Assembly: GCF_022539665.2 (NCBI RefSeq)
Contig: NC_081339.1
Coordinates: 620,001-684,000 of the forward strand
Direction of reading: 5' to 3'
DNA: 64,000 bases
Source of the DNA: Daphnia carinata
Lineage: Eukaryota; Arthropoda; Branchiopoda; Diplostraca; Daphniidae
In this document: positions 934-29,093 of the stretch, in pieces
How the letters are laid out: each line of letters starts with the position of its first letter
Position numbering within the stretch: position 1 is the stretch's first letter
Notes under the pieces: model-generated
What the model was told of the DNA's origin: nothing
Seen by the model: only the letters and a program-made list of their open reading frames with translations
Databases searched by the model: none
Position numbers and translations under genes: made by a program

Positions 934-2417
934 GTGCAAAGTTTTTTGGGCTTATGTTCGTACTACCGACGTCATATCCAAGGTTTTGCTTCAATCGCTC
1001 GCCCACTCACATCACTCACGAAAAAAGAAATTTCGTTTGTGTGGGGAGAAGACCAGGCTAACAGTTTCAATGCCCTGAAAAAAGCGCTCACCTCATCTCC
1101 AGTTTTGGCCCATCCCAACTACGACTTGCCAATGGAAATTTTTCCTGGCGCCTGCGGATACGGGATAGGAGGAATACTAGCCCAGTGCATAGAAGAAGCA
1201 GAACGTCCCATAGCATACGCCAGCCGCTTACTAACTAAATCGGAGTGAAGTGTTCGAAAGTGAACTATTCGATAACTGAAAAAGAGTGTCTTGCATTAGT
1301 GTGGTGTCTCTCCAAGTTCACATGTTTTGTGTGGGGCTGCAAAGTGAAAGTCGTCACAGATCATCAAGCTCTATGTTGGTTGATGAGCAAAAAAGACCTA
1401 GCAGGTCGTTTAGCACGTTGCAGCTTATCGCTACAAGAATACGATATCACGATCGTATATCGCAGTGGAAAAACGCCTGACAACGCAGATTGTCTTTCAA
1501 GAAATCCATTACCAAAGACGGAGGAGCAAGAAGACGACCGCTGTGTTGTCATAGGAGCACTAACTGATGACTCAACACTCTCCGAAGAAGAAAACGAGTC
1601 CCTAGCAGACAAGCAAAAAATCTGCAGTAATTGGAATCAGCTAATTCAAAAAATCCAAAGTGGAAAAGCAAGAGTGAAAAATTTTGTGATGAACAATGGA
1701 AAAGTCTACAAAGAAACTATAAAGAATGGAAAAAGTTACAGAAGATTGTGCGTACCTGTTGACTATCGTGAAAGAATCCTATACGCCTATCATGACGACA
1801 TCGTCTCCGGTCACCTTGGAATCAGTCGCACTCTACGAAAAATTTGTGATCGTTTCTACTGGCCGAAGATGACACTGGACATAGTGCGTCATGTGCAGAG
1901 TTGCGTACACTGTCAGAGCAGAAAAGGAGTTCCAGATAAATCTCCAGGACTTCTACAATGCATCAAAGTGGAAAGACCGTTTCAAAGAGTAGGAATGGGC
2001 CTTCTAGGGCCATTTCCACTGCGGATGAAATCATTCCATGAAGCTGTGTCGGGTCCTGGCATCACCGAAGAAACCTCAGAGAAAGAAGATGAAAATCATC
2101 AAGAAGAAGAAACGCAAGAGATACCTGCTTCAAGTGATCCACAACCTCAGGCTGATCCAGAAGAAACACTAGTTGAACAGAGCAGCGAATCACAGGACAT
2201 CGAAGAAAATGATGTGGCCACGTCCACTCCGGAAGTAGTCACGCCAACGTCAACTAGAAGACCCACTCGTAGCAGACGACCTCCAGCCAGATATTTAACT
2301 CTATTGGTACCGTTCCTCATTTTCCTGATTGGGCCGCTGCCAACCAACTCACTGATCCTGAGAGAACATACAATATTCAAACAGCAAACTGTTGTGGCGT
2401 TCAGTGAATCATCGTGA
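934..2417 (+). pseudogene. gypsy G1 pol remnant: RT connection, RNase H, integrase zinc finger; cores deleted
   Basis: The first frame (934-1248) opens in the RT connection (FLGLCSYYRRHI) and enters RNase H. A frameshift near 1245 passes to a second frame with TDHQALCWLM and the typical end of RNase H. The integrase HHCC zinc-binding module is visible around 1785-1920 (H...H and CVHCQ). The frame reaches the beginning of the catalytic core (GLLGPFP), where the first catalytic Asp position reads Gly. It then jumps straight to an acidic tail rich in E, Q and S, so the DDE core is deleted. The tail runs in frame into a hydrophobic segment that looks like the envelope signal peptide. Both essential enzymes are therefore non-functional, while the downstream env is largely kept. 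Confidence 0.85.
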
Positions 2418-4057
2418 ACCATCGTAACAGATCTTGACTTGGGAGTAGCTGATACAGCGACTGCATGCCTAAAGCAAAAGATACTTCAACAACAGGAAGT
2501 GGCAGAAAAGTGGAAGAATACAGGCTTACGATCACAACAGATAGCAGCCAGAAAAATCACCAGCCGAACGCAGACAATCCTGAAAGAAATGGAAACTGTA
2601 GCAGACCGATTGGCAAACATAAAAAAAGCTTCAAATCCTGACCAAAGAAACCGTCGAAGTCTTGTTGACGGTGGAGGATCAATCCTGAAATGGCTGTTCA
2701 ACAATAGTGAATGAATCACTTTGGGAGTCCAGAACAAACGCAAAACTCATCAGAGAGCTGCAGGGCCAGTATTCCATACTAAACAACGATAACACACCTC
2801 ATGGAGACGGAGGGGAAAATAGGACAACTAATACTAAATCACTTCGAGTATTACATCCAACTGGATGAAACACTTGAAGCAATGAATCAAATCTTGCTGT
2901 GGCTACAACAATTTGCCGATAGTCTCGATGTCGGCTTCAGTCTGTTAGCCAACGGGCATTTTGCGCCACAAATTGTCTCTCCAGCAAGATTCAATAAAGT
3001 TATTAGAACAATAAACGAGCAATTACCAAGAGGATGGTTTATTTCCAGCGATGAGCTTTGGGTCGCCTACCGAGAATCAACGGTAACCGTGGCGGCAATG
3101 GAAAACTCGTTTCGTCTCTTCATACATGTTCCTATCTTCGATCACGCTCAGCAGTACAAGCTCTTCGAAATTATCAACCTCCCGACAGCTACAGACAATG
3201 GAACGCATGGTGTCTTGTTTGGAAATCTACCAGAATACCTTGCTGTATCTGCTGATCTCGAAACGTATCTAGAACTATCCAAAGGTGATGTTAAAGATTG
3301 CAGCAAAATAGGAAGACCACTGTGTAAATTCCATACCGGCATCAGCAAGAGAACAGCCCGAAAATCTTGCGCAATGGCTGTCTTTTTAAATGATTCGGCC
3401 CGAATCAATTCACAATGCAAAAAGAAGTTCACAGATTGGCACGGACCTGAAGTAGTCTACATGGGATCCAATCAATGGGTCTACTCAGCCACGAAACTGC
3501 ATGAGATTGTGTTTTCGTGTCCAGCAGGAGAGCAGCCACCTTTGAGAACAACAACATTACCAGCTGTAGGAATGTTTGAAATACCTTTGGGATGCACCGC
3601 TCGAACAGAAGAATGGGTATTCCCAGCCAGCATGGAAGGAAGCATAACGGCGCCAAAACTACAAACAGTTGTTCTACCATCAGTGAAAATTTTTGCACAA
3701 GATGTCCAAGAAGCCGATGGCAAAAAGCACACGTTTGTCGAGCTTCCACGAGAAAATAGTTCGTCTGTAGACATTATCAGTCAGCTGCTCCATCGCAACG
3801 CACAAGCAACGTTGTCATCTGAAATGACTGGAGAACAAATCCATAACTTAATCATGGAAAAAGAAAAAGAAAAAGAGTTTTACCTTACTCGTTATCCTTA
3901 CGAGTTAGTGGCTTTCAACATTATATTGATGTGCGGAATAGTGTGCTTGGTGATTAAATTCTACACACTTCATAAGCGTCTTATCACTCATGAGAGGTGC
4001 GACATCGCTCCACCCGGAGACCCCGGGAGGAATGAAATGGAATCGAAAAATCTCTAG
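2296..4057 (+). pseudogene. env: F-type envelope glycoprotein of gypsy G1 (broken in three frames)
   Basis: This is a membrane fusion protein of the F type known from errantivirus-like elements. The hydrophobic signal peptide lies at about 2296-2360, in frame with the pol tail. The next open segment (2439-2714) has a helical region and ends with a basic RNRR site, the pattern expected for furin cleavage, followed by a glycine-rich hydrophobic stretch as expected of a fusion peptide. A further frame (2801-4057, 418 residues) carries the ectodomain with many paired cysteines. It ends with one transmembrane helix (about 3905-3955) and a short basic cytoplasmic tail. Stops or frameshifts at about 2417 and 2714 separate the parts. 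I am sure of the env identity. Any function is doubtful because of the breaks. Confidence 0.82.
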
Positions 4058-4158
4058 AAAGGAAAAATTGTTAGTGATGCTAGTGAGTGACAAAAACAGA
4101 GAAACAACTGCTTAGGGAAAGAAGTGAAAAGTTTATTGTTGTCAGACAAAAAATACAA

Positions 4159-4611
4159 TCACTCTTCACGATCATTATCGAAATCTAAAAGATCGTCGTC
4201 TTCAGTGTTGTTTTCCTCAGCCGCGGCGTTTAAAACTTCAAGGCGAACAAGCCGGGCATCTTTCCTGGCTTGCATTTCCTCTTGTATGATTTCCCTGTAG
4301 AAATCAGAGCGGCGAGGTGTAGGATGATAAATGTCCTGCCCGGACTTCAACCACCAAAGAAAACGCGCGTGAAAGTGGGGAAAGTGATTCCTTTACCTTG
4401 CATAACCAGGATACGTGCTAAAACAAAGAAAACATCAGTATGAAATGAAATATAATAAATTTTGGAAAGATTACTACCTGTAGTAATAGTCGTGTAACCA
4501 CGGAGGAGAGACGGTTAAGTGATGACCAAGAAGAACATTGTCTTCGTATACTCGTTTGAACACGACCAAAAACTCCGCACGATAATAAGTGATAAGCGAC
4601 CAAAACGGATA
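4159..4611 (-). CDS. antisense two-exon ORF downstream of env in G1 (unknown protein)
   Basis: The function is unknown. Read on the minus strand, an open frame runs 4611-4478, then a canonical intron (4477-4418, GTAGTA to TTTTAG, 60 nt), then exon 4417-4159 ending in TGA. The phases match (2 nt plus 1 nt). No Met is seen in the first exon, so a further 5' exon may exist. The second exon begins with a PGYAR motif, has one in-frame TAA a codon later, then continues with ARFLWWLKSG and DIYHPTP. It ends in a helical region and an acidic tail (DDDLLDFDNDREE). The same exon occurs antisense in G2 (26805-26970), with an acceptor at the identical place and a Tyr codon where G1 has the stop. The element's sense frames here are not conserved in the same way. 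The coding claim is inference from this two-copy comparison. Confidence 0.55.
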
Positions 4612-4887
4612 CTATAACCGGGAAAGTTACCACCACAGTAACACACAAGAGCGCATTCAGCAAAGGGGAGATTTTAAAGCATAAACTCGAACGTAAACAT
4701 TCTCGTGGCAAAGCAAGAAACGAACTGAAGACGGAAGACAGCAGTTGAATTTCTCATGCATCCTAACGTTGATTATCTTTTATCACATCCACAAATGAAT
4801 TGCTAATTATAGTCGTTTTTCTTACGCTTCCATTGTTCCTTAGTTCTAGCAAATTTCTTTTTTGATAAAAGCACATTGACCACACTT

Positions 4888-5092
4888 CATCGTATGGCTA
4901 ACTTCTACTGTAGTTGTCCCTTTACCTCTCTAAAGCGACCGCTCTTTATCGTATGCTTGACTTTTACTATAGTAGTCCCTTTACCTCTCTAAAGCGACCG
5001 CGCTTTATCGTACGCTTGACTTTTTCTATAGTCCTTCCTTTACCTTAATAAAGCGACCTCGCTCTTTCGTATGCTTTCTCATTACTATAGCT
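4888..5092. repeat. 59-bp tandem repeat, about 3.5 copies
   Basis: The unit contains a CGTATG-like start, a CTATAGT-like middle and CTCTAAAGCGACC. Unit starts fall at 4891, 4950, 5009 and 5068, exactly 59 bp apart. The copies differ by point changes. The array lies between env and the 3' LTR of G1, a region that in env-bearing gypsy elements is non-coding and may hold enhancer or insulator-like repeats. That role here is only a guess. Confidence 0.85.
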
Positions 5093-5202
5093 TTTGATGA
5101 ATCTTGGAAAATCACGGGTTTCCCCAATATTTTGTTATACCCTTGATTCCCTTTTAATGATTATTAGTACAGTCGGGTCGCCTGTCTTGAAGAAGGGGGA
5201 CC

Positions 5203-5572
5203 TGTCGCGAGGGAAAAATAGTGACGTGGTTGTCATTTCTGAAAAGACGTGACAACCAACGATCAAATTGCGCACAACGCAGCTTCTCTTGAAAAGATGC
5301 TGCAACACGCAGATAATTTGATAAAAGATAGTTATCCCTAGAATTTATGTAACCCTAGAGATGGGGCGTATATTCCTCACGAGGGTATAAAAGCCCCTAC
5401 ATTTTTAGCTCTAAGTTCAGTTCTTGAGTTCTTAAGCTCTCTTCAAGTTTTCCTACAGTTCTCTTCACGTTCAAGTTAAGTAAAAGTGTAGTTATTCTTT
5501 ATTTCTGCTATGTCTTGTATTTCTTCTTAAAATTCAATACAATTCATTAACAAAGTAAAGTCCAGTGTGACA
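5203..5572 (+). repeat. 3' LTR of gypsy G1
   Basis: A purine-rich tract (AGAAGGGGGA, 5191-5200) comes directly before a segment that starts TGTCGCG and ends GTGACA, the TG...CA ends typical of LTRs. A TATA box (TATAAAAG, 5386-5393) sits in the middle. A short T/C-rich initiator-like region follows. The partner 5' LTR is outside the window, so the ends are inferred from sequence signals and not from comparison of two copies. Confidence 0.7.
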
Positions 5573-7335
5573 ATATGATACCGATATTTGCTACCTACCA
5601 GTGAAAATAATAACCAAATGCGGATTTCCCACGCAATGTAACAAAAGATTTGAAAACCTTCATGATGTTAGCCAATGGTTTAGTAACCAGAATTGGGGCA
5701 AAGTTATTTTTTGTAAGCAATTCTCGGTTTCTTGTTGCACCCCAACTGCTTAATCCGTTTATATTGCCATCTTTCTCGATGTCTTCTTTTGCTATCCTTT
5801 GGAAATTCCTCTTCATTACTTTTTTTAGTAATTAAAAATTCCGAAAGATTCATATGCTGGGCTTAAACTTCTGCCTTATATGCATGCTTCAGTCGCTCTA
5901 ACAACTGCCCCGTAGAAATTTAAAGCACTGATAAATAATGAACTACATTGTTATATAATCGATGATTTTGCAAAACCAATATATCGCATTGATTTTGGGA
6001 TACACCACTCGGCATATCTACATCGTGCATTATGTGCAGAACAGCCTATTGGGAAGCACGATATGCCGATAACGAACAGTGTTAATGTTTGATCCTGAAT
6101 GTAGGACTTTTTTTTACATTTCAGGAAATATCGTATCGGTTTACATAAAAATATTAATAAAATTCTGCAATACATTGGTATTGTGATGTTAAATACAAAT
6201 ATTGATAATCGATATCCCTAGCATAGAGTATACCTGGATTAATAACGGGAATATCCTTTGCATGGAGGAGCTTGAGCTTCGCATGATGGAGTTGCGGCTG
6301 GTCGATTCCAAATTGCCAGCACGCCCCGGTAATTGGCACGGTTAATAACGTCAATCTAGTGCAACGTAGTCTCCGCGGTACGTCGCAACCATCTAGGCCC
6401 TGCAAAGCACACGCCCCCAGCATTCTGATTGTAGTGTTGTGTAACGAAGCTGAACACATTGTTCCTTTAATTTCTTTCGCTTTGCTTCCGTAGTAACGTG
6501 CAAGTCTGGACATGGGAGTTGCAACATGTATGTGCAACTCGGCTGACCTAGATGAATTCCTGCAAGCTGATTCACGCAGACGGTATCTCACCAATATCAC
6601 GCCATATTGAACGCGTAGTAGTCGACTAAAGGCATCTCTCTTTCGCTTTATTAGTAGTATTGTGCCTTACTTGATGTTTTATTAACTAAATCAGTTTCGT
6701 TAAAACTCGTTCACACTTAGAGTTATTCACGGCATTCGATTGCCTAGTCTTACTTATTTGAACTCTTGTTTGGGTATCGCTCGTGCGGAAGTTGAGTTAT
6801 CACGCTCACCCCGTGTCGTTTTTCTTCTCGTTCTCGATACGTGTGATCACGGTAAGGCCCAATTATAATTGTTCGAAAAATTCGAAAGCTTCTTCTTCTT
6901 CTTTGTTCTCTTGTATTTTTAATTCTTATTCTTGTGTTTTAGCCTATAGTTATACATACATCATTGTGGGTAAAACGTCGACGAGTTCTTTTCATTTCAT
7001 TCTTGTCTTAAATCGGTAAAATCATCCTCCCCACGGGGAGAATGCTTTACAGTTGGCAATTGTCTAGTTCTGTAACATACAAATTATCTACGCCCATTTC
7101 TAGGTAACGATACGATTATCGATAAGGTATCTAATGATCCTCATCTTCCAGTTAAAAATTACAATGCGCAAGTGATACAATGCCTATAATTTAGATACAT
7201 ACATTATAGGCGCGGGTAACAATGATTTTAAAAATGAGATTTAAAATGGATTTTGGGTTCTAGTTACTATGGCAATACTAACCAGATTAAAAAAAAAAGC
7301 GACAAATAAAATTTTTTTTTCGGAAAGGGACTGGT
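5573..7335. other. unassigned AT-rich DNA
   Basis: No recognisable gene. A 148-codon minus frame at 6154-6600 is open but shows no motif I know, and base composition alone could explain it. A T/C-rich stretch near 6890-6915 and a run of A and T near 7290-7320 are simple sequence. An older, eroded repeat is possible. Confidence 0.5.
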
Positions 7336-7381: not shown

Positions 7382-7602
7382 CCACGGCCTTAGCCCTATT
7401 TCTCCCTAGAGGAAGTTCTATTCCTTTTCCGTTATTCGAGTAGGAACGATAAGCCCCCAAACCGGTAGGCAATAAATTGCATAATAGCGTCAGCTGTTTT
7501 CTAAATGTTCCGTTAAATTGAAGAATTTCAAATTTTTGAGCTTTGACCTGACCCCACTCTTGCACAATCATTTCGTGTCCAATATCACCCATGCCATTTG
7601 TA

Positions 7603-8603
7603 CAGTATGTTGCACAAAAATGTGTCAGGTAAGGCCCAAGGTTTTTAAAATATATATATAGATATTTTCTTTGGCTGTGTTGGCGCTAGGGGGCATATAC
7701 AGCTTACCTTGACGGCTACATTTTCTGCAAGCAACACATCCCCGGATTACTGCACGGCGTAGCAGACGGTTTTATTTGTTATTTCTAAACGTCAACTGTC
7801 ACAAATATAGTAAGTGTTAAGTGTATTTTGTAATGATTATGTTGGATATCAATACACTTTCAGAGGTAAATCTGCTTAACTTTTAAATTTATATTTTATT
7901 TCATTTTCTGTTTTTCTATTAGGGATAAATTAAGGTGTTAACACTTGTTAACGACACCACTAATAATGTCTCTGGCTTTTGGTAACTCCCTAACAGGCTG
8001 CAAGTAAAAATAAATTCAAGCTTTCTCCAAGGTATTAAATGTATATTATATGTTTTCATAATTTAATTCCAATTTGTACAGGGTATGGCTTTACCACAAG
8101 ATATATTGGAATACGGAAAGGTTCCATCGGAGGGGATCTCTGATGTAACATTATCTATACTTTGACAGCAATGAACAGAACCGGATGCCTACATTACATC
8201 TCAAACACATGCAAAGGTATTTTACTTTACTAAATATGAAGAATAATAGTATCTTGTAAAAGGAAATCATACCCGGTATCATTAAATTCCAAATGTGGAA
8301 ATACAACGGAGGCTTATTAACAGTTCATTTCTGTTTGTTTAATTGTGAACTTCATTGACGTGTATTACTTATTGTCTAACAAAATGCTTTAAAACATCAA
8401 ACCTATTGTTTTAATGTTACCTTATATTTCTTTATATCTAAGCTTAAAATAGTAGTCCAGAATCAAATTTTTTCTTTTATTTTCAGTTATTGGGAAAACA
8501 AAATAAAACAAACAAAAGGTCGAGCTTCTTGACCGAAGTCGTTTTAAATAAAATAAACATAATAAGCAGCAAAACAATAAGAAAACAAATTCAGTTTCTT
8601 GGA
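7603..8603 (+). repeat. left terminal inverted repeat of the Tc1-like element
   Basis: Pairs with the reverse complement of 10716-11595. Outer 60 bp are nearly identical. An AT microsatellite at about 7650-7665 and an extra segment near 8410-8505 make this arm longer. The inner end falls at about the stop codon of the minus-strand transposase remnant. Confidence 0.9.
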
Positions 8604-9240
8604 AAAGAATTTAAGAGTTCTTTCCAATATGCGTCGCTGTTGTTTTTGGTTTCCCAAAAACGTTCGATGGTGGCCCATAAATCTTCTTTGTTTCCTGGTT
8701 GTTGCGGATAAAAAGAAATGGTTTTTTCTAGATCCAACCAGATCTTTCTAAATGGCTAAAAATCTCCGGAGTCTTGCGGCCATGGCTGAGCCGTAACTTT
8801 TTCTTTTCCATTGGTCCACTCCTGTAGAGCGTCCGTGATGATTCTTGATTTTCCGTTCCTGGATGTAATAGTGGAAATTTTCAACTCATCAAGTAGTTCA
8901 GGACTAAATTCGTCGCTGAACACTTCGATTATTTTTCCAGGAAAATTGTCTACGCGACAAATGGACCCTATTCCGCCAGTCGATGAAAACCAAACCCACA
9001 CATGAAGGGAATGCTTGTTTTTTTTACCTTACATGTGGAATTATAAAAAAATACATGACCGGCTTGATGAATACTAAAATAAAATGAAAATTGTTAAAAG
9101 AATTTTTACTTTTCCAAAAATTAAACACTAAAATTAAAAGACTTACCTGAATGTAGCAGCATCAGTAAAAATCACGTTATTCCATTTATGCCCATTAAGT
9201 TGGGCTTCAGGATCATTGGCTTTGCGGGTAATACACTTGG
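8591..9240 (-). pseudogene. degraded second Tc1-like transposase, divergently oriented
   Basis: On the minus strand, sequence at 9240-9147 reads HKWNNVIFTDAATF, matching the first catalytic block (WTKVIFSDEKTF in the plus-strand gene). It stops at a splice donor (GTAAGT). After an intron the frame resumes with VWVWFSSTGG (from about 9004), equivalent to VWAWFSSDGA in the other gene, and runs through PWPQ. An in-frame stop near 8755 follows, then a C-terminal region with WATIERFW and YWKELLNS that ends at 8591 beside the inner TIR border. The helix-turn-helix part and roughly 30 residues after the intron are missing, and the second catalytic Asp block (QDxxxxH) is not recognisable. The protein is clearly divergent from the plus-strand one, so this is not a simple inverted duplication of the same gene. 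Confidence 0.75.
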
Positions 9241-9472
9241 AAAAAATGATGCCATAGTAGGAGCAAAAATCGTCGCCCACGCTTCGAAGAAAAAAGAGGA
9301 AAAATGAATGACGATACAGTGACTTTTGTACGCGTTAAAATCATGTGGGGAAAGGGTAAGAAAAAGTCACCTAGGCTGAACTGGACAGGAAGTCTGTAGC
9401 CATACATATAGGTATTTATCCTTGACCTAGGTCGAAGTGCGTCAGCTGAAAAAAAGTATACCTTTTAACACT

Positions 9473-10625
9473 ATGTTTTTACGTGAGACAGGCAAACATT
9501 TAAGTCCCCAAGATAAAGGCGCAATAGTTGCGCTTTTTAATAAAAATACTACCATCCCTGAAATTGCGGATACAATTCAGTGCCACCCTAATACAGTTAA
9601 AAAGTGGATTCGTCGATACCAAGAAACTTTTGACGTTAACCGTAAAATAGGATCCGGAGCACCCCGTAAGACGACGCCAGCACAAGATTCTATGCTGTTG
9701 CAAGCCTTCAAGTCAAAACCAATAACAACCCTGCAGGAACTCAAAGGTAAGAAAAAAATAAAAATTTTAATGTTATATTTTATTAAAGCTAGATCATATA
9801 TAGATATTTGCGAGTTGCCCATTCATCGAGCAACGATTTCTCGAAGAGTAAAAGGGCACGGGATTCACGGCAGAATTGCTGCCAAAAAAAAATTCCTTAC
9901 AGAAGCCCCAAAAAATGCAAGATTAGCATTCGCAACGGAATTCGCCAATAAAGATGTAGATTGATGGACAAAAGTTATATTTAGCGATGAAAAAACTTTT
10001 GGGTAAACAATTTATTATTTTAATTTTTCTTTATTTTGATTTCATTATTTTATGTTCATTTAACAGTTCCCACGAGTGTGGTCGTTCCTTCGTTTATCGC
10101 ACGAATGGAACGAGGTTCAACCCTAGTCACACTCAGATAATTAAACGAAGTGGGAGGCAATCAATTCCAGTTTGGGCCTGGTTTTCGTCCGATGGCGCCG
10201 GGAAAATGCATCGCATCAACGGCCGTCTAACGGCTGAGAAATACATCGGAATATTGGAGAACGAACTACTACCATCTGCATGGGCTAGGTTTGGAACAGA
10301 TGAGCTCATTCCATTTGTTCAGGATCATTCCCCCATCCACACGAGTTTCCTCGTTCGGGACTGGTTTGAAGATGAAGGTGTCTCCTTTCAGCTTCTTCCG
10401 TGGCCACCAAAAGGAGCAGATTTGAACCCCATTGAAAATTTGTGGAGTGAAATGGTGCGTGAAATGGATTCTCATCACGTAGAAAATCCCAACGAACTTT
10501 GTAGTGCTGTAAACAATACCTGGAGCCATCTTAGTCAACGGCCATCCTACTGGCAAACTCTCGCAAAGTCCATGAGTTCCCGTCTAGAACTAGTCATAGC
10601 TGTGGATGGCGACTGGACTAAGTAA
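9473..10625 (+). pseudogene. Tc1/mariner (IS630 superfamily) DD36E-type transposase, one nonsense codon
   Basis: The start is the ATG at 9473. Residues 1-60 form a helix-turn-helix (IADTIQCHPNTVKKWIRRYQ) followed by a GSGAPRKT linker, the DNA-binding part. Two short introns are predicted: 9747-9803 (57 nt, a multiple of three, so the frame stays open even if retained) and 10003-10066 (64 nt, GTAAAC to TTAACAG). The catalytic residues are D in VIFSDEKTF, D in VQDHSPIH and E in NPIENLW, with 36 residues between the second D and the E. A TGA at 9962-9964, just before the first catalytic block, is the only clear break. DD36E transposases are a recognised Tc1/mariner group. The enzyme would cut and paste the element by binding its TIRs. 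Alternative: TGA readthrough, which I consider unlikely. Confidence 0.88.
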
Positions 10626-10715
10626 TAGATTATAATGTTTTTTGAAAGAATAATAAAAACGACTTTTTGAAACAAACTGATTTATCTACATTAATTGCAG
10701 TACACAAGGTAGGAA

Positions 10716-11595
10716 ACTGATTCGTTATTTTTATTGTTTTGCTGCTTATTATGTTTATTTCATTTAAAATTACTTCGGTCAAGAAGCTCGACCTTTTGTT
10801 TGTTTTAAAACATTTTATTAAAACAATAAGTAATACACGTCAATGAAGTTCACAATTAAACAAACAGAAATGAACTGTTAATAAGCCTCCGTTGTATTTC
10901 CACATTTGGAATTTAATGATACCGGGTATGATTTCCTTTTACAAGATACTATTATTCTTCATATTTAGTAAAGTAAAATACCTTTGCATGTGTTTGAGAT
11001 GTAATGTAGGCATCGGGTTCTGTTCATTGCTGTCAAAGTATAGATAATGTTACATCAGAGATCCCTTCCGATGGAACCTTTCCGTATTCCAATATATCTT
11101 GTGGTAAAGCCATACCCTGTACAAATTGGAATTAAATTATAAAAACATATAATATACATTTAATACCTTGGAGAAAGCTTGAATTTATTTTTACTTGCAG
11201 CCTGTTAGGGAGTTACCAAAAGCCAGAGACATTATTAGTGGTGTCGTTAACAAGTGTTAACACCTTAATTTATCCCTAATAGAAAACCAGAAAATGAAAT
11301 AAAATATAAATTTAAAAGTTAAGCAGATTTACCTCTGAAAGTGTATTGATATCCAACATAATCATTACAAAATACACTTAACACTTACTATATTTGTGAC
11401 AGTTGACGTTTAGAAATAACAAATAAAACCGTCTGCTACGCCGTGCAGTAATCCGCGGATGTGTTGCTTGCAGAAAATATAGCCGTCAAGGTAAGCTGTA
11501 TATGCCCCCCTAGCACCAAAACAGCAAAAAAAATATCTATCTATATATTTTAAAAACCTTGGGCCTTACCTGACACATTTTTGTGCAACATACTG
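10716..11595 (-). repeat. right terminal inverted repeat of the Tc1-like element
   Basis: Reverse complement of the left arm, including the segment containing GGTCGAGCTTCTTGACC near 10780-10800. The outer end CATACTG abuts the TA target site at 11596-11597. Confidence 0.9.
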
Positions 11596-11597
11596 TA

Positions 11598-12042
11598 CAA
11601 CTTTGACCGCAAAAGAATTTTTTGCGATGTGTTTATAGTTGAATTGGTAAAATTATTTTGCCTTTGAAATATTATTAGGAAATCTCTAGTCTACTCATTT
11701 CCAATATCAATAAACGTATAGTTAGAAAATAATGCAGGAAAAAATCACCGATATAGAACAATAAAAAACGCAGACTTTTTGTCATTTTTATAGTTTGTTA
11801 AATAACTCAATAAATAACTTAGACACGAGACTCAAATTTTTACGCAATTTATAACAGCCTATTTTGAACAAAATGTATAAATATTAAATTTTTTAATAAT
11901 TACTTATTTTCCTCGTCACTGTATAAATTGGTATAGTGTCCAAAATGGGTCCTGTCTCTCCTGTTTACTTCAATACCCAACACATTAACAAAGGAACAAT
12001 AAATAATGGACAAATGAATTAAACAAAAAATGATATATATTT
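11598..12042. other. AT-rich DNA between the Tc1-like element and the hAT relic
   Basis: No coding signal seen. It may contain the 3' terminal region of the hAT element, but I could not identify a hAT inverted repeat or 8-bp target duplication. Confidence 0.4.
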
Positions 12043-23465: not shown

Positions 23466-24450
23466 ATGAAAGCTCACTTTCGTTTTAAAAACGATGACCC
23501 ACTTCCATTGGGGTCAGAATTTGAATACACCGTTGACCAAACAATACGAATGCAAAACAGTGATATTTGCATCACCGAAGGAGAAAGAAATCGACTGGTT
23601 GCAGCCACTTGTTCCAAATATTCTACACGGTGGATATTAGACCAGCAAAATTACCGATTAATCGCACAGGAATAACATCTTTGCATAACGCTTGGATCAT
23701 CCCAAAACATCATTCTAACAAAATGTAGGGATGATGAAAATGGTGCAACACAACAATGGATTTTTGAAACTGTGTATACTAATCCTGAAATCCAAGAATA
23801 CTCCCGGATACAACGTTAGCGGAAATGCAAGAGATACAACAAAAACAGCGAAGAGCGATCATAACAACGATTAATTCGCCGATATTCGGAGGAATTTTAA
23901 AAACTAATCACGGCAGCGGAAATATAATCTGGGACATGATTGCCTGGGGATTGTTGAAAAATGGGAAAGCACCGAGTGAAAAGTGTCTGACTCATCACGG
24001 AATAAACAAACAGATGACACTAGAAGAATGTGACGCGGATTGGACCAAATGTCAAGAACAACTAAGAACACTGGTAACCAGTAATGACCCATTGGTGCGA
24101 TCACAAACTACAGTTGCTAACTGCAGCAGAACAACAGAACGAGGACAAGCTTTCGAATATACCTCTGATTTCACCATCAGACCGTTCAACACGAACAACT
24201 GTGTAGAAGCCAACACAACAATGCTCGTCCTCCAGGAATGCGCCAACACAAGCTCAGTCTGGGGCACATACGAACACACAGGACAACTCATGGCAACAGA
24301 TAGAACTGGATTATACTCACCTTCATCAGATAGGAAGTGTCTAACACAAAGAGTAGGACGTGTGAGCCTGGGGCATTGTCACAGCTCCAGTAAAAAACAA
24401 CACTTTAGCTTTGAATATCGCAACCCACATCAAATAAGGACACTTTCAGC
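23466..24450 (+). other. ricin-B-like (beta-trefoil) repeats within G2 env
   Basis: A cysteine-hydrophobic pattern repeats five times: DICITEG...VAATC (about 23566), LCITLG...ILTKC (23679), KCLTHH...TLEEC (23976), NCVEAN...VLQEC (24200) and KCLTQR...SLGHC (24331). Several are followed by a W or aromatic position, including TQQWIFE, close to the Q-x-W signature of R-type lectins. Two larger blocks share FEYTxDxTIR just before the cysteine. Ricin-type beta-trefoil domains bind sugars. A glycan-binding role in the envelope is inference. A TAA at 23673-23675 and a change at about 23820 break the reading. Confidence 0.6.
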
Positions 24451-24651
24451 GGCAGCCATTATAGCGCTACATACTCAACAGCCATTCGACGGGAAAGCAC
24501 TCCCATCTATACCGCCACTAATGCAAAGGGAGATCAACAACCAATCAGAAAAGAACAAAACTTTGGCCACTCCCCTGCCACGCCCACAACCGAAAATTCC
24601 ACAACAACGACAAGCACTACGACGACTACAAAGCCCACAATAAAAACAACC

Positions 24652-25977
24652 TTGGGAACAACGACAAAAACAGCGGTAAAAACCACGACAACAATTAAGC
24701 CAGCTACAAGCACAGCAGCCAACAAACCGACAATAACACATAAAATAACAGCGAAACCAAGTATAACAACAACATCAACAAAACCATCCACAACTACAAA
24801 ATCAATAATCACGTCAACAAGCACTAAACCTACCACTACTACTAGGCCTACGACAACTATTAAAATATCTTCAACTTCAACAACCACTACAACCACGAAA
24901 CCTACGTCAAGAACAACAACGGCTACTACGACAAGCTCCACAACAGCAACAACAACCACGCACCAACCAAGCACAACTACGCAAAGTACGACGACAGTAA
25001 AAGAGAGTCCAATGACCCCACAATCGTCAACACCGACAGTCAGAATGACCCCATTAACTACAACAGAAACAACGCCTACGACAGAAGAAAATCAAATTCG
25101 GGCCATCGAGGAGAACAACTTTCCAACTTTACCGTCAGCAAAGTCCCTGTTAATGGATCAGAAAACTGAAGAGTCATTAATTAATGATAATGTGGAAAGC
25201 GGTCTACCTAAAAACATCGAAGAATTCAACGACAAGATTAAATACGAAATAAGTAAGATGCACGACCAATATAAAATCAGCGTTGAAACAGAACACGAGA
25301 ACAAACTCGCAAAAGAAATTCGAGATGTTTATTGTCAACTATCGGCAATCAAAAGAACACAGGCCGTTATCTTAGCTCAAACCAGCGGAATTTTAGCAGC
25401 AGCAGCAATAGGTTTACCTATCTGTACGAGATTACAAGGCTTTGGTCAAGCAATGACACTTCAACAATGCGAAGCCAAAAGAATTTTTATATCAGCAAAT
25501 GGAACAAAATGTGGATTCCAACCGTTCTTTACTTACGAAGGAAAGAATTGTACGATCGGAACAGATGGATGGTCAATTCACCCATATTCCGATTGTTTCT
25601 GGAAAACACCGTTAGTAAATTTAAAGGGAAACCCACACACCTGGGAACACAACTCTACAACAAGAGATTGGATACGCCAGAAACCTAGCATTCACATGCC
25701 TAATCTAGACCTCATCTCAGAATTTGAAGAACTCCACCTTAATGACTTCGACTTCTCGCTGAAAAGTCATCCAGCACACGAGACAATGGAGATGGAACAA
25801 CTAAATATCCTGAATGACCTAGTAGGCAGAATGCAAGAGGGAAATTCCAATTCTGTTGGAGATATTGTGATGTCAGAACAACAAGATAATCAGATAGATC
25901 ATATGTTCTCATGGTTAGACAAATTGAAAATAATAGGTCTTTCAGCAATTGGATTCGTGCTATTTCTCGTATGCTAA
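24652..25977 (+). CDS. mucin-like stalk, helical stem and TM segment of G2 env
   Basis: 441 open codons. Residues 1-145 are about half Thr, with Lys, Pro and Ser, an O-glycosylation (mucin) type composition. The remainder has long helices (HENKLAKEIRDVYCQL), a glycine/alanine stretch (SGILAAAAIGLPIC), several Cys, an N-x-S/T site in EHNST, and a hydrophobic C-terminus (KIIGLSAIGFVLFLVC) that is the membrane anchor. The frame stops right after the anchor, and the tail continues in another frame. Open length and ordered domains suggest this part decayed least. Confidence 0.7.
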   Translation: MGTTTKTAVKTTTTIKPATSTAANKPTITHKITAKPSITTTSTKPSTTTKSIITSTSTKPTTTTRPTTTIKISSTSTTTTTTKPTSRTTTATTTSSTTATTTTHQPSTTTQSTTTVKESPMTPQSSTPTVRMTPLTTTETTPTTEENQIRAIEENNFPTLPSAKSLLMDQKTEESLINDNVESGLPKNIEEFNDKIKYEISKMHDQYKISVETEHENKLAKEIRDVYCQLSAIKRTQAVILAQTSGILAAAAIGLPICTRLQGFGQAMTLQQCEAKRIFISANGTKCGFQPFFTYEGKNCTIGTDGWSIHPYSDCFWKTPLVNLKGNPHTWEHNSTTRDWIRQKPSIHMPNLDLISEFEELHLNDFDFSLKSHPAHETMEMEQLNILNDLVGRMQEGNSNSVGDIVMSEQQDNQIDHMFSWLDKLKIIGLSAIGFVLFLVC

Positions 25978-26705: not shown

Positions 26706-26804
26706 TACAAAACTAACAAAATCAAAAATCAAAACAAAATCATCAGGAGCATCAGTATCCATATAATTATGCTCAAAATCAAAATGTTTTTAAAAAATTT
26801 TTGT

Positions 26805-26970
26805 AGCGACATCTCTTCATCGTGCTCGCGCTGGAGAACCTCCTTCACCAACCAGGAGGAAACCAACCGGAGTAGGATGGAAAATATCAATCCCCGACTC
26901 CAACCACCAGAGAAAGCGAGCGAATCTCAATGGGTAGCGGACGCGATATCGCGCATACCCAGGATGGTTC
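26805..26970 (-). pseudogene. antisense exon in G2, homologous to that of G1
   Basis: On the minus strand a splice acceptor (TTATTCAG, AG at 26972-26971) is followed five bases later by ATCCTGGGTATGC. In G1, AG is followed five bases later by ATCCTGGTTATGC. The frame reads PGYARYR, then ARFLWWLESG and DIFHPTP to 26868. A single frameshift then passes to VKEVLQREHDEEMSLQK, matching the helical part of G1 (YREIIQEEMQARKDARL). No clear first exon was found upstream. Function unknown. The G2 copy is broken by the frameshift, whereas the G1 copy is broken by one TAA. Confidence 0.55.
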
Positions 26971-27704
26971 CTGAATAAGAGATCGGATTATTATTATTAT
27001 TATCTTTAAAAAAAACCAAAAAAAAAAACATACAAGTAATAGTAGTCATTAATCCATGGACGTTCGTTTTTAAAATGCACAAAATACGCAACAGAAAAGA
27101 AAAATTGCAACGAACTGAGAAAATATTGCCGATCCTTGGGACGAAACCGCTGGAAGTGACTCTTAGGAGTGGGATATAGCTCTTTTTCAAAGCTAGACAA
27201 CGTGGTTTCAACTTGTCGCCGATACCGCGAACAGTAGTTAAAATCGAAATTTGACATCACAAACCACGAGCAGAACAACAAATCAGGCAGTGTTACATAC
27301 CAGAGAATGACAGAAACTAACTCACAAAGAAAAATAAAAACGCAAGAACCCCTATAAGAAAATGACAATGACTAAAAAGGAATAAAGAAAGTTAAAAAAC
27401 AAACAGGATATTCGTCGATTCGCCCTGCGATAAATCCAAATGTCAGCGCACCACAAGACGTAGAAACAATTTCGCCCAAAAAGGGTTTGAAACAGAAAAT
27501 GGAACATAATTAAATGCAAAGACAAACCTGTTATCGAATTAGGAAGAGAGAAACAAGAACTTATGAAAAACAACATGAAGATCTTTGAATAAGCAAGATT
27601 TTGCAAAATGCGTAAACTAAACTCTTCCCAGTGTGTCAACGGCATAACTCCAACAAAGTTTCGCAAAGCCAAGTGTGATCTAAAAACCAAAAATTCATCT
27701 CAAA

Positions 27705-28151
27705 ATGGCCTATAACAACACCACTCAGGATAACAAAATGGAAGTAACCATCATCCATCAGGAGACGAAGAGGGTATACAGGCTAATCACTATTAGCGAT
27801 ACGGAAGGTGAGGATGAGCAGCAAGACCACAGGAAAGTGCGAAAAATGTGGATAAGAACAAAGAAATAGTGCGATATATAGGAATGGAGCGGAGAAGTAG
27901 AAACAGAGAAGATCAACTTTTTCAGAACTGAAGAAAAACTGAATGACAGCAGTGAATCGAGTGAAGATGAGAACGAAGGATTAACGGCGTATTGTGGAAT
28001 AGCACCCGATTGCGAAAGTGTCTACAGTGTTGATTTTATATTAGGAAATGATAGTGACACTTATCTCCAGTGTGAACCTTCCCAAAAACGGAATAAGCCA
28101 GACGACCAACAAAGGGAAACAGAGGCATGTAAAAATTGTCGGATATTGTAA
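27705..28151 (+). pseudogene. acidic accessory ORF of G2 (frameshifted)
   Basis: The ATG at 27705 opens 54 codons (MAYNNTTQDNKMEVTIIH...) ending at 27869. The protein sense continues in another frame from about 27885 to a TAA at 28149-28151. It is rich in D, E and S (NDSSESSEDENEGL) with a Cys pair near the end (ACKNCRIL). No known domain. It lies between the env and ankyrin regions, so it is a likely extra gene of the element, now with a frameshift and a TAG. Confidence 0.4.
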
Positions 28152-28158
28152 AATTTGT

Positions 28159-28208
28159 CCGCTGATATGGATGCCATCGTTTGAAAACGATGGCATCCAT
28201 ATCAGCGG
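28159..28208. repeat. perfect palindrome, 24-nt arms, 2-nt loop
   Basis: Arm 1 (28159-28182) starts CCGCTGATATGG and arm 2 (28185-28208) is its exact reverse complement, separated by GA. It sits at the beginning of the ankyrin-region ORF. Such a fresh, perfect palindrome suggests a template-switch event or a cruciform-forming site. Confidence 0.9.
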
Positions 28209-29093
28209 AGCGAGCAGAAAAAATCCAACTACGAAGACAAGCCATGATAGACTTAGAAAGCAGAAAACTTTCATTAACAATGATGGAAGCTCCAATGCAG
28301 GTAGTAAGAAGGTGCATCCAAAACAAATACAAAACTCAAGGGTTGGGAAACTGGGTAGGGTTGGCCAAGACAGAAGATGGCCACATTCCTCAATGAAAGA
28401 TTCGAAGAGGAACAGACATTACTCCACACCAGCGTACGAAGATGTAGGTACGACATCACCGATCTTCTACTATCCTTCGGAGCAGACCCAGAGATACTCT
28501 ACCACGGCAAAACAATTGGTCATATCGCAGCGGCCGAAAATGATCTACTGTTACTGAGGATCCTAAAACATTACAACTGCGAATTTACAGCTCGCAATTA
28601 CAACGGAGGAACTCCCTTAATGTTGGCAATCTCACACAAAAACCAAGAATGTGCAAAGTTAATATGGACACCAACTAACATCAACATTGCATCACCTGAC
28701 GGCAGAACCGTTCTCCATTATTTAGCCATGTATGGCCTAGAAGACCTGGCCACCCAAATTTGCGCAAAGAGAATCATCAATATCAACCAACAAGACGATT
28801 CAGGCGAAACCACCTTACACGTAGCAAGCGGATTCAACCGAATCGACATGATCGAGATTTTACTGCTACACGGAGCAGACGCAGGGATAAAAGACTCCCA
28901 TGGACACACAGCTGGATCAGAAACATGCAGCACAAGAGCGCAAACCATATTCCAAAAATGGGAACTAAAACATAACAGTAGTCTCCTGACTAAAATTAAA
29001 AGAAAAGAACACCAACAATACAGCCGCGAGGAAAATGAACAAGCCATAATCAACATAGCCGAAATACCAGGCAGAAAAGAAAAGCAAGAATAA
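28181..29093 (+). pseudogene. ankyrin-repeat ORF of G2, between env and 3' LTR
   Basis: A first frame (28181-28396) encodes a helical N-terminal part and ends in TGA. A second frame starts at an ATG at 28377, overlapping by 20 nt, and runs 238 residues. About five ankyrin repeats are visible: TLLHTSVRRCRYDITDLLLS, TIGHIAAAEN, TPLMLAISHKN, TVLHYLAMYG and TTLHVASGFNRIDMIEILLL followed by HGADAGIKD. The C-terminus is basic and charged. Ankyrin repeats bind proteins. No ankyrin gene is a normal part of gypsy elements, so capture of a host or viral gene is a fair inference. The overlap could be a frameshift mutation or two separate ORFs. Confidence 0.8.

What the first reader, a model, noticed from the sequence alone, without database searches (positions are those of the whole stretch)
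4159..4611. Antisense, apparently spliced gene conserved downstream of env in two gypsy elements
Seen: minus strand of G1 has exon 4611-4478, intron 4477-4418 (GTAGTA...TTTTAG) and exon 4417-4159, in matching phase. G2 has the homologous exon (26970-26805), also antisense and also between env and the 3' LTR. In both, the splice acceptor AG lies exactly five bases before ATCCTGG. In the shared block (PGYAR ... ARFLWWL ... DI[YF]HPTP) at least five codon differences are silent in the antisense frame (Leu, Ser, Asp, Thr, Pro), and Tyr/Phe and Lys/Glu are mild changes. The sense frame over the same bases changes most residues. Each copy has one lesion (TAA in G1, frameshift in G2), as for a once-functional gene. 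The envelopes of G1 and G2 are unrelated, so the antisense gene is older than, or independent of, the env. Antisense genes (like HBZ of a deltaretrovirus) are known in retroviruses, but I know of none in gypsy elements.
Basis: partly seen in the sequence, partly recalled or inferred. Interest (0 to 1): 0.87.

Follow-up and report, generated by a model that had tools for sequence, protein, structure and literature searches.

The report
Antisense accessory gene in Daphnia retroelements
Retrovirus-like elements in a water flea genome carry a small, apparently spliced protein gene written backwards behind their envelope gene, and some elements have swapped versions of it like a cassette, which hints at a regulatory or self-protection role.

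Summary
The finding is real and larger than reported. The genome is very probably Daphnia carinata. Forty fetched copies of the G1-type element show a two-exon gene opposite to env: exon 1 from an ATG (window 4700, not 4611), a 58-67-nt intron, and exon 2 of about 255 nt. The GT donor is kept in 39 of 40 copies, the AG acceptor in 37 of 40. In the antisense frame median dN/dS is 0.29 (exon 1) and 0.18 (exon 2) over 21 copies. G2 has a homologous gene with the same splice phase, although the two envelopes show no similarity. Homologues, some modelled with the same exon junction, occur in D. magna and D. sinensis. In two independent cases the gene is replaced by a version about a quarter to a third different while LTR and env stay nearly identical, so it behaves as an exchangeable cassette. 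Best reading: an antisense accessory protein gene with its own internal promoter and poly(A) signal, probably a regulator of the element. Expression and function are inferred; no RNA data were available. Antisense ORFs are known in plant and fungal LTR elements and in deltaretroviruses; ten paper searches found none in an animal gypsy element.

The parts
4478..4700 (-). G1 antisense gene, exon 1 (from ATG at 4700; this copy is broken by an in-frame stop and a frameshift)
   Evidence: alignment of 40 copies; exon 1 is 224 or 221 nt in 27 of 40
4418..4477 (-). G1 intron, 60 nt, GTAGTA...TTTTAG
   Evidence: GT in 39 of 40 and AG in 37 of 40 copies; lengths 58-67 nt in the 36 with both; retention gives an in-frame stop in 25 of 27 testable copies
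4159..4417 (-). G1 exon 2 (to TGA; in-frame stop near its start in this copy)
   Evidence: 29 of 30 tblastn places have no stop in the matched stretch of a 46-aa query; median dN/dS 0.18
4132..4137 (-). AATAAA poly(A) signal of the antisense unit
   Evidence: sequence; AATAAA within 80 nt of the stop in 15 of the 27 copies examined (some near-duplicates), 0.65 expected from shuffles
4701..4840 (-). conserved stretch upstream of the antisense ATG, with TATAATTA at 4804-4811; candidate antisense promoter and 5' UTR
   Evidence: -60..-1 pairwise column identity 0.74 against 0.64 in exon 1 (the value for -120..-61 failed to compute); TATAATTA within 140 nt of the ATG in 34 of 40
4878..5076 (.). 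59-bp tandem repeat, 3.4 units, upstream of the antisense gene; possible enhancer
   Evidence: Tandem Repeats Finder
2783..4057 (+). G1 env-like ORF (424 aa, no Pfam match)
   Evidence: homologous sequence next to the gene in 33 of 40 copies
1239..2417 (+). G1 pol fragment (RNase H, integrase zinc domain)
   Evidence: Pfam RT_RNaseH, Integrase_H2C2
5203..5572 (+). G1 3' LTR (limits inferred by eye from the polypurine tract and TGTC...GACA ends; the 5' LTR was not examined)
   Evidence: sequence; homology to copies mostly ends near 5576
27034..27257 (-). G2 antisense gene, exon 1, 224 nt, open
   Evidence: 224 nt in 3 of 8 G2-type copies; pN/pS 0.39 over 7 copies
26971..27033 (-). G2 intron, 63 nt, GTATGT...ATTCAG, same phase as G1
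26722..26970 (-). G2 exon 2 (this copy is out of frame after about 35 codons)
   Evidence: pN/pS 0.33 over 7 copies
28359..29093 (+). G2 sense ORF with ankyrin repeats between the antisense gene and the 3' LTR, divergent to the antisense gene
   Evidence: Pfam Ank_2 7.5e-24; divergent layout in all 31 linked places of 54 tested
24415..25977 (+). G2 env-like ORF, no significant similarity to G1 env

Best explanation
It is a protein-coding accessory gene of env-bearing Ty3/gypsy elements of Daphnia, encoded antisense to gag-pol-env between env and the 3' LTR. Shown by sequence: two coding exons under purifying selection, a conserved short intron, a poly(A) signal soon after the stop in many copies, homologues in other Daphnia and in two element lineages with unrelated env, and replacement of the whole gene between elements. 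Inferred: it is transcribed from its own promoter in the conserved region upstream of its ATG, against the genomic RNA, spliced and terminated before env, giving an acidic protein of about 150-175 aa. Because the replicating RNA is the opposite strand, the intron cannot be spliced from it and so survives retrotransposition. The most likely role is regulation of the element (transcription, RNA export or host silencing), whatever env the element carries.
For: 47 matches and about 40 G1-type copies; 136 places with the exon-2 core in the own genome, 122 without a stop in it by my count of the table. NG86 on 21 of 40 copies, 210 pairs: antisense frame median dN/dS 0.29 and 0.18; the other frames 0.31-1.91, with 501-2185 stop cells against 60 and 99. 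Codon-position identity 0.66/0.72/0.54 and 0.75/0.82/0.59 over 28 distinct copies; donor 0.96, acceptor 0.85, intron interior 0.60. Intron length modulo 3 is 0, 1, 2 in 19, 15, 2 of 36 copies. ATG, both exons and splice sites intact in 17 of 40 copies. G2 lineage: same phase, pN/pS 0.39 and 0.33. D. magna and D. sinensis models P0002, P0004, P0007, P0015, P0019 with the same junction, and D. carinata model P0025 that joins exon 1 to exon 2 of the copy in L035. AATAAA in 15 of 27. Gene replacement.
Against: No RNA evidence was available; the gene models may be ab initio, and several other models (P0008, P0017, P0021, P0022, P0023) join the exons differently. The genomic setting of the D. magna and D. 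sinensis genes was not seen. AlphaFold models have very low confidence (mean pLDDT 46 and 42); Pfam and PDB gave nothing better than E = 0.1 for the exon alignments. 23 of 40 copies are not fully open, and in none of the 8 G2-type copies did I see both exons intact to the usual end. 12 of 27 copies lack AATAAA near the stop. The mirror frame on the env strand has low ratios too (0.55 and 0.31; 0.42 and 0.48): expected from shared third positions, and in G1 its stops exclude it, but in G2 the stop counts do not separate the frames (23 and 39 in the antisense frame against 6-224 and 18-186). The promoter is only a conserved stretch.
Confidence: 0.8

Rival explanations
1. The product is a specificity factor under pressure to differ (for example exclusion between elements, or a counter to host defence), and gene replacement is favoured because it changes that specificity.
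For: L021 against seven copies: LTR 0.3-3.1%, env 0.3-1.5%, gene 31-33% different; against L041 the divergence lies from about the ATG to shortly after the stop. L019 carries the gene of L018 (1.6% apart) in a backbone like L030. Mean pairwise distance of the gene 0.216 against about 0.07 for env and 0.15 for LTR (136 pairs).
Against: Template switching between co-packaged RNAs would also give mosaics without selection; only two events are clear; breakpoints elsewhere were not surveyed; median dN/dS is below 1.
Confidence: 0.25
2. The antisense RNA itself, not the protein, is the active product, pairing with genomic RNA to trigger or block silencing.
For: Antisense retroelement transcripts with RNA-level roles are discussed in PMC7264820 and PMC10186651 (passages read).
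Against: Selection acts on codons and reading frame across a spliced junction, which an RNA-only role does not need.
Confidence: 0.05
3. A host gene captured long ago by the elements.
For: It has an intron; its origin is unknown; a predicted D. carinata protein fuses neuroglian-like sequence to it (P0025).
Against: All 40 fetched copies show some match to the G1 stretch 4701-5600 beside the gene (the LTR itself in 36 of 40) and 33 of 40 have env on the other side; named homologues are uncharacterised Daphnia proteins apart from P0025. The 40 were found by similarity to the element, so a distant host copy could be missed.
Confidence: 0.1
4. A nested mobile unit of its own (for example a small DNA transposon cassette) that moves between elements.
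For: A 9-nt inverted repeat (CAACTGCTG / CAGCAGTTG) flanks the gene, both arms within one mismatch in 28 of 40 copies.
Against: In six copies tested 2 to 66 of 300 shuffles reach the same length; no target-site duplication noticed (by eye only); the repeat was not noticed in the G2 alignment (by eye).
Confidence: 0.04
5. A conserved DNA or RNA structural element without coding function.
For: Only the overall conservation.
Against: Codon-position pattern and frame-specific ratios in two lineages.
Confidence: 0.01

Closest known systems
Antisense additional ORFs between pol and 3' LTR of plant LTR elements (maize Grande gene23, rice RIRE2, Silene Retand) and fungal Boty
   Same: Position before the 3' LTR, antisense orientation, presence in most copies of a family; Grande gene23 has its own promoter; tandem repeats are frequent in that region of Retand (PMC7264820, PMC11963269, passages read)
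   Different: Those hosts are plants or fungi; here the host is an animal and the element also carries an env-like ORF; no match to TRP28 (PF04195) or any other Pfam family at a meaningful E-value; a conserved intron and gene replacement
HBZ and APH proteins of deltaretroviruses, HIV-1 ASP
   Same: Antisense genes of a provirus, some spliced, with a regulatory role shown or proposed (PMC10186651, passages read)
   Different: No bZIP or other recognised domain here; host and virus family differ; in the window's G1 copy the gene does not overlap env (4057 against 4159)
CERV of Cer1, a C. elegans LTR retrotransposon
   Same: An accessory regulator made from a spliced mRNA of an invertebrate LTR element (PMC10309623, abstract read)
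   Different: By the abstract CERV is needed for export of genomic RNA; its strand and place were not read and no sequence comparison was made
ORF3 types of bdelloid rotifer LTR elements
   Same: Extra ORFs in invertebrate LTR elements, shared between element types (PMC5408684, listing and passages seen)
   Different: The types named there (env, DEDDy, GDSL, CC, TM) differ; the passages seen describe no antisense gene

Membership tests
Ty3/gypsy (Metaviridae) element carrying the gene | RT-RNase H and integrase domains of that type in pol, flanking LTRs | tested here: met
   RT_RNaseH and Integrase_H2C2 (G1), RVT_1 and RT_RNaseH (G2) by Pfam; LTR match in 36 of 40 G1-type copies; terminal direct repeats of G2. 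No pol tree was made.
[quoted passage not shown]
Antisense additional ORF (aORF-3R) of Retand type | TRP28 domain | tested here: not met
   No Pfam family for 14 exon-2 members; for 13 exon-1 members only single matches at E 0.1 or worse; none for P0002 and P0019
HBZ-like antisense gene | Antisense transcript from a promoter in the 3' LTR | not testable with these tools
   no RNA data; in G2 a sense ankyrin ORF lies between gene and LTR, which favours an internal promoter
HBZ-like antisense gene | bZIP domain | tested here: not met
   no such Pfam match
Protein-coding gene | Purifying selection in one frame and conserved splice sites | tested here: met
Protein-coding gene | Spliced transcript and protein observed | not testable with these tools

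The most novel reading that the evidence does not exclude
Daphnia gypsy retroviruses carry an antisense, interchangeable cassette gene whose product defines a specificity (between elements or against host defence), so that an element changes type by swapping this one gene while keeping LTR and env, a modular logic like that of immunity or compatibility cassettes.
Probability: 0.22. Interest if true: 0.88.

Novelty: new variant of a known kind. Interest (0 to 1): 0.74.

Why it matters
As far as ten paper searches show, it would be the first antisense, spliced, selected protein gene in an animal Ty3/gypsy element, extending to invertebrate retrovirus-like elements a design known from deltaretroviruses and plant elements. 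The replacement of the gene on constant LTR/env backbones makes its role testable and asks what it recognises.

Tried and rejected
Tried without result: Pfam and PDB sequence searches for the exons; AlphaFold on Daphnia homologues with 11 and 20 sequences, confidence too low, so no fold search was made; IMG/VR scan, 42 pattern stretches, none confirmed; SL1 scan as a taxon test, uninformative because its controls rang nowhere. Rejected: exon 1 starting at an acceptor near 4612 (the copies show an ATG at 4700); a structural DNA element; a promoter inside the LTR as the only option, since G2 has a sense ankyrin ORF between gene and LTR. The 9-nt inverted repeat is kept as a weak observation only.

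Rows dropped before counts: one search used 21 of 40 copies, chosen by hand (near-duplicates and short or decayed copies left out, L043/L044 too); one search used 27 of 40 (13 skipped because exon 2 read outside 79-110 aa), near-duplicates kept; one search had 36, 25, 28, 32 and 29 of 40 copies for its five segments and 136 pairs with all five; one search used 7 of 8 copies per exon; one search used the first 54 of 137 ankyrin matches and the first 72 of 136 antisense matches. In one search the splice counts run over all 40 copies, although L046 has no exon 1 aligned there.

Full report
Organism. The window is G000:C9:620001-684000 of a 108-Mb genome; 150 places match the arthropod cuticle domain Chitin_bind_4 (150 of 425 candidates scored). 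A predicted Daphnia carinata protein (P0025) lies on a contig of 9,432,699 bases, exactly the length of contig C4 here, and its last part equals the end of exon 1 plus exon 2 of the antisense-gene copy in L035 on C4 (compared by eye). I take the genome to be Daphnia carinata, a water flea.

The observation. A search of the own genome with the G1 block gave 47 matches; a 46-aa exon-2 peptide gave 30 places, 29 without a stop in the matched stretch. I read 40 copies with flanks (L001 and L017-L055). Their alignment shows that exon 1 begins at an ATG (window 4700), is 224 or 221 nt long in 27 of 40 copies, ends at a GTAGTA or GTAAGT type donor, and that exon 2 codes for about 85 aa in most open copies (79 to 99 aa). 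The window's G1 copy is damaged: an in-frame stop and a frameshift in exon 1 and a stop in exon 2. Seventeen of 40 copies keep ATG, both exons and both splice sites (13 of 28 after removing copies at least 97% alike).

Coding evidence. NG86 over 21 copies (210 pairs): antisense frame median dN/dS 0.29 for exon 1 and 0.18 for exon 2; the five other frames of each exon lie between 0.31 and 1.91 and hold 501-2185 stop cells against 60 and 99. The lowest of the other ratios (0.55 and 0.31) belong to the env-strand frame that shares third positions with the gene, which I take to be geometry; that frame is full of stops (1576 and 2061). Pairwise identity by codon position over 28 distinct copies is 0.66/0.72/0.54 and 0.75/0.82/0.59; donor 0.96, acceptor 0.85, intron interior 0.60. 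Intron lengths modulo 3 are 0, 1 and 2 in 19, 15 and 2 of 36 copies, and reading through the intron meets a stop in 25 of 27 testable copies, so the frame makes sense only after splicing. AATAAA follows the stop within 80 nt in 15 of 27 copies against 0.65 expected; several of the other 12 have AATACA or AATAAT near the same place.

A second lineage. In G2 a homologous gene is present with an exon 1 of 224 nt in the window copy (3 of 8 copies), an intron of 63 nt in the same phase and exon 2 from 26970; seven copies per exon give pN/pS 0.39 and 0.33 in the antisense frame, 0.42 and 0.48 in the mirror frame and 1.12-1.85 in the others. Stop counts do not separate the frames in G2, and none of the eight copies looked intact in both exons, so the G2 evidence is weaker than that of G1. 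By eye the two proteins share FxRFxPxDR and PWxxDYYY in exon 1 and the PGYARYR...WWxES..DI[YF]HPTP core in exon 2. G1 and G2 env show no significant similarity, their pol fragments do. The exon-2 core of G2 finds 136 places in the genome at E 0.1 or better (three of them above 0.001), including G1-type copies; 122 have no stop in the core by my count.

Relatives. A profile of 14 exon-2 sequences found 13 proteins: 11 Daphnia magna, one D. sinensis, one unnamed. A profile of 11 of those found 45: D. magna, D. sinensis and D. carinata, plus unnamed metagenome proteins. P0002 (173 aa), P0004, P0007, P0015 and P0019 join the two exons at the junction predicted here; others (P0008, P0017, P0021, P0022, P0023) are joined differently. 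The named ones are called hypothetical or uncharacterised, apart from P0025, 'neuroglian-like'. A third search with an unnamed protein (P0040) returned 28 proteins, none with an organism name. Pfam and PDB gave nothing better than E = 0.1 for the exon alignments and no family for P0002, P0019, P0040 and P0014. AlphaFold gave helical models of very low confidence. Three homologues examined are acidic (pI 4.6-5.0) and aromatic-rich.

Gene replacement. All 40 copies show some match to the G1 stretch 4701-5600 upstream of the gene (only 83 nt in L049), the LTR itself in 36 of 40, and 33 of 40 show G1-type env downstream. The gene is more divergent than its neighbours: mean pairwise distance 0.216 against 0.149 (LTR), 0.138 (stretch between) and about 0.07 (env) over 136 pairs. 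Of 31 pairs with env at most 3% and LTR at most 3.5% apart, 7 have a gene more than 15% apart; all 7 involve L021, so this counts as one event. Along L021 against L041 identity is 96-100% over the LTR and 93-100% from 590 nt after the ATG on, but 50-78% in windows from about the ATG to +530; there is one further dip to 78% at -190 to -160. Second event: L019 and L018 have genes 1.6% apart (windows 93-100% from -180 to about +960), while L019 matches L030 at 95-100% in the LTR and from +780 on, but at 61-85% over the gene. L022 and L035 are a possible third (env 2.4%, gene 25%, but LTR 19%). Differences in rate cannot explain 0.3% beside 33%; replacement does. Template switching between co-packaged RNAs is the ordinary mechanism (recalled); whether selection favours it is open. 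The intron is present in the replaced copies, so the exchange went through genomic-strand RNA or DNA, not through spliced antisense mRNA (inference).

Transcription (inferred). Before the ATG lies a stretch more conserved than exon 1 (-60..-1), TATAATTA in 34 of 40 copies, and in the window a 59-bp tandem repeat. In G2 a sense ORF with ankyrin repeats lies between the gene and the 3' LTR. Of the 54 best ankyrin matches 31 lie within 3.5 kb of one of the 72 best antisense-core matches, all 31 in divergent layout and 0.7-1.6 kb apart; 23 were not linked. An internal, perhaps two-way, promoter is therefore more likely than one in the LTR. Since the replicating RNA carries the gene as its reverse complement, the intron is not spliced there and survives; this would explain an intron in a retroelement.

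Function. I commit to an accessory regulator of the element (about 0.55 within the gene reading), with a specificity or counter-defence factor as the main alternative (about 0.25). The grounds are its presence in elements with unrelated env, its maintenance by selection, and its exchangeability. None of this was tested at the bench.

Literature. Ten searches ran (one search failed). [quoted passage not shown] A word search of the main text of the D. pulex LTR survey finds no 'antisense' (PMC2996953); the passages seen of a paper on insect endogenous retroviruses use it for piRNAs and insertion orientation (PMC12992720). I found no report of an antisense protein gene in an animal gypsy element in these searches; most subscription papers are not covered.

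Changes made on re-reading the calls: exon-1 length given as 27 of 40; G2 exon-1 length as 3 of 8 and the weaker G2 stop counts told; models with other junctions named; unlinked ankyrin places told; identity ranges of the mosaics corrected.

Noticed in passing
window 28045-29093 (+): The G2 element carries a sense ORF with ankyrin repeats (Pfam Ank_2 7.5e-24) between the antisense gene and the 3' LTR; 137 matches at E 1e-20 or better in the own genome, some with open frames over 400 aa: probably an accessory gene of this lineage.
   Followed up: partly
L035 (G000:C4:357000-362000); P0025: A predicted D. carinata 'neuroglian-like' protein ends in part of exon 1 and all of exon 2 of the antisense gene: either a real exonisation of a provirus or a mis-joined model.
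   Followed up: no
L043, L044 (contigs C49, C37): G1-type LTR and antisense gene (exon 2 cut short) lie about 1.2 kb from a G2-type exon-2 match and near sequence 37% identical to part of G2 env: a recombinant or nested element.
   Followed up: no
window 4105-4112 and 4739-4747: A short inverted repeat (CAACTGCTG type) flanks the antisense gene in 28 of 40 copies with at most one mismatch per arm; only marginally beyond chance.
   Followed up: partly
window 4878-5076: 59-bp tandem repeat between antisense gene and LTR, with a near-palindromic core; could be an enhancer or insulator-like array.
   Followed up: no
window 7598-11600: Large inverted repeat, arms of 706 nt at 98% with 2.4 kb between them; not studied.
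   Followed up: no
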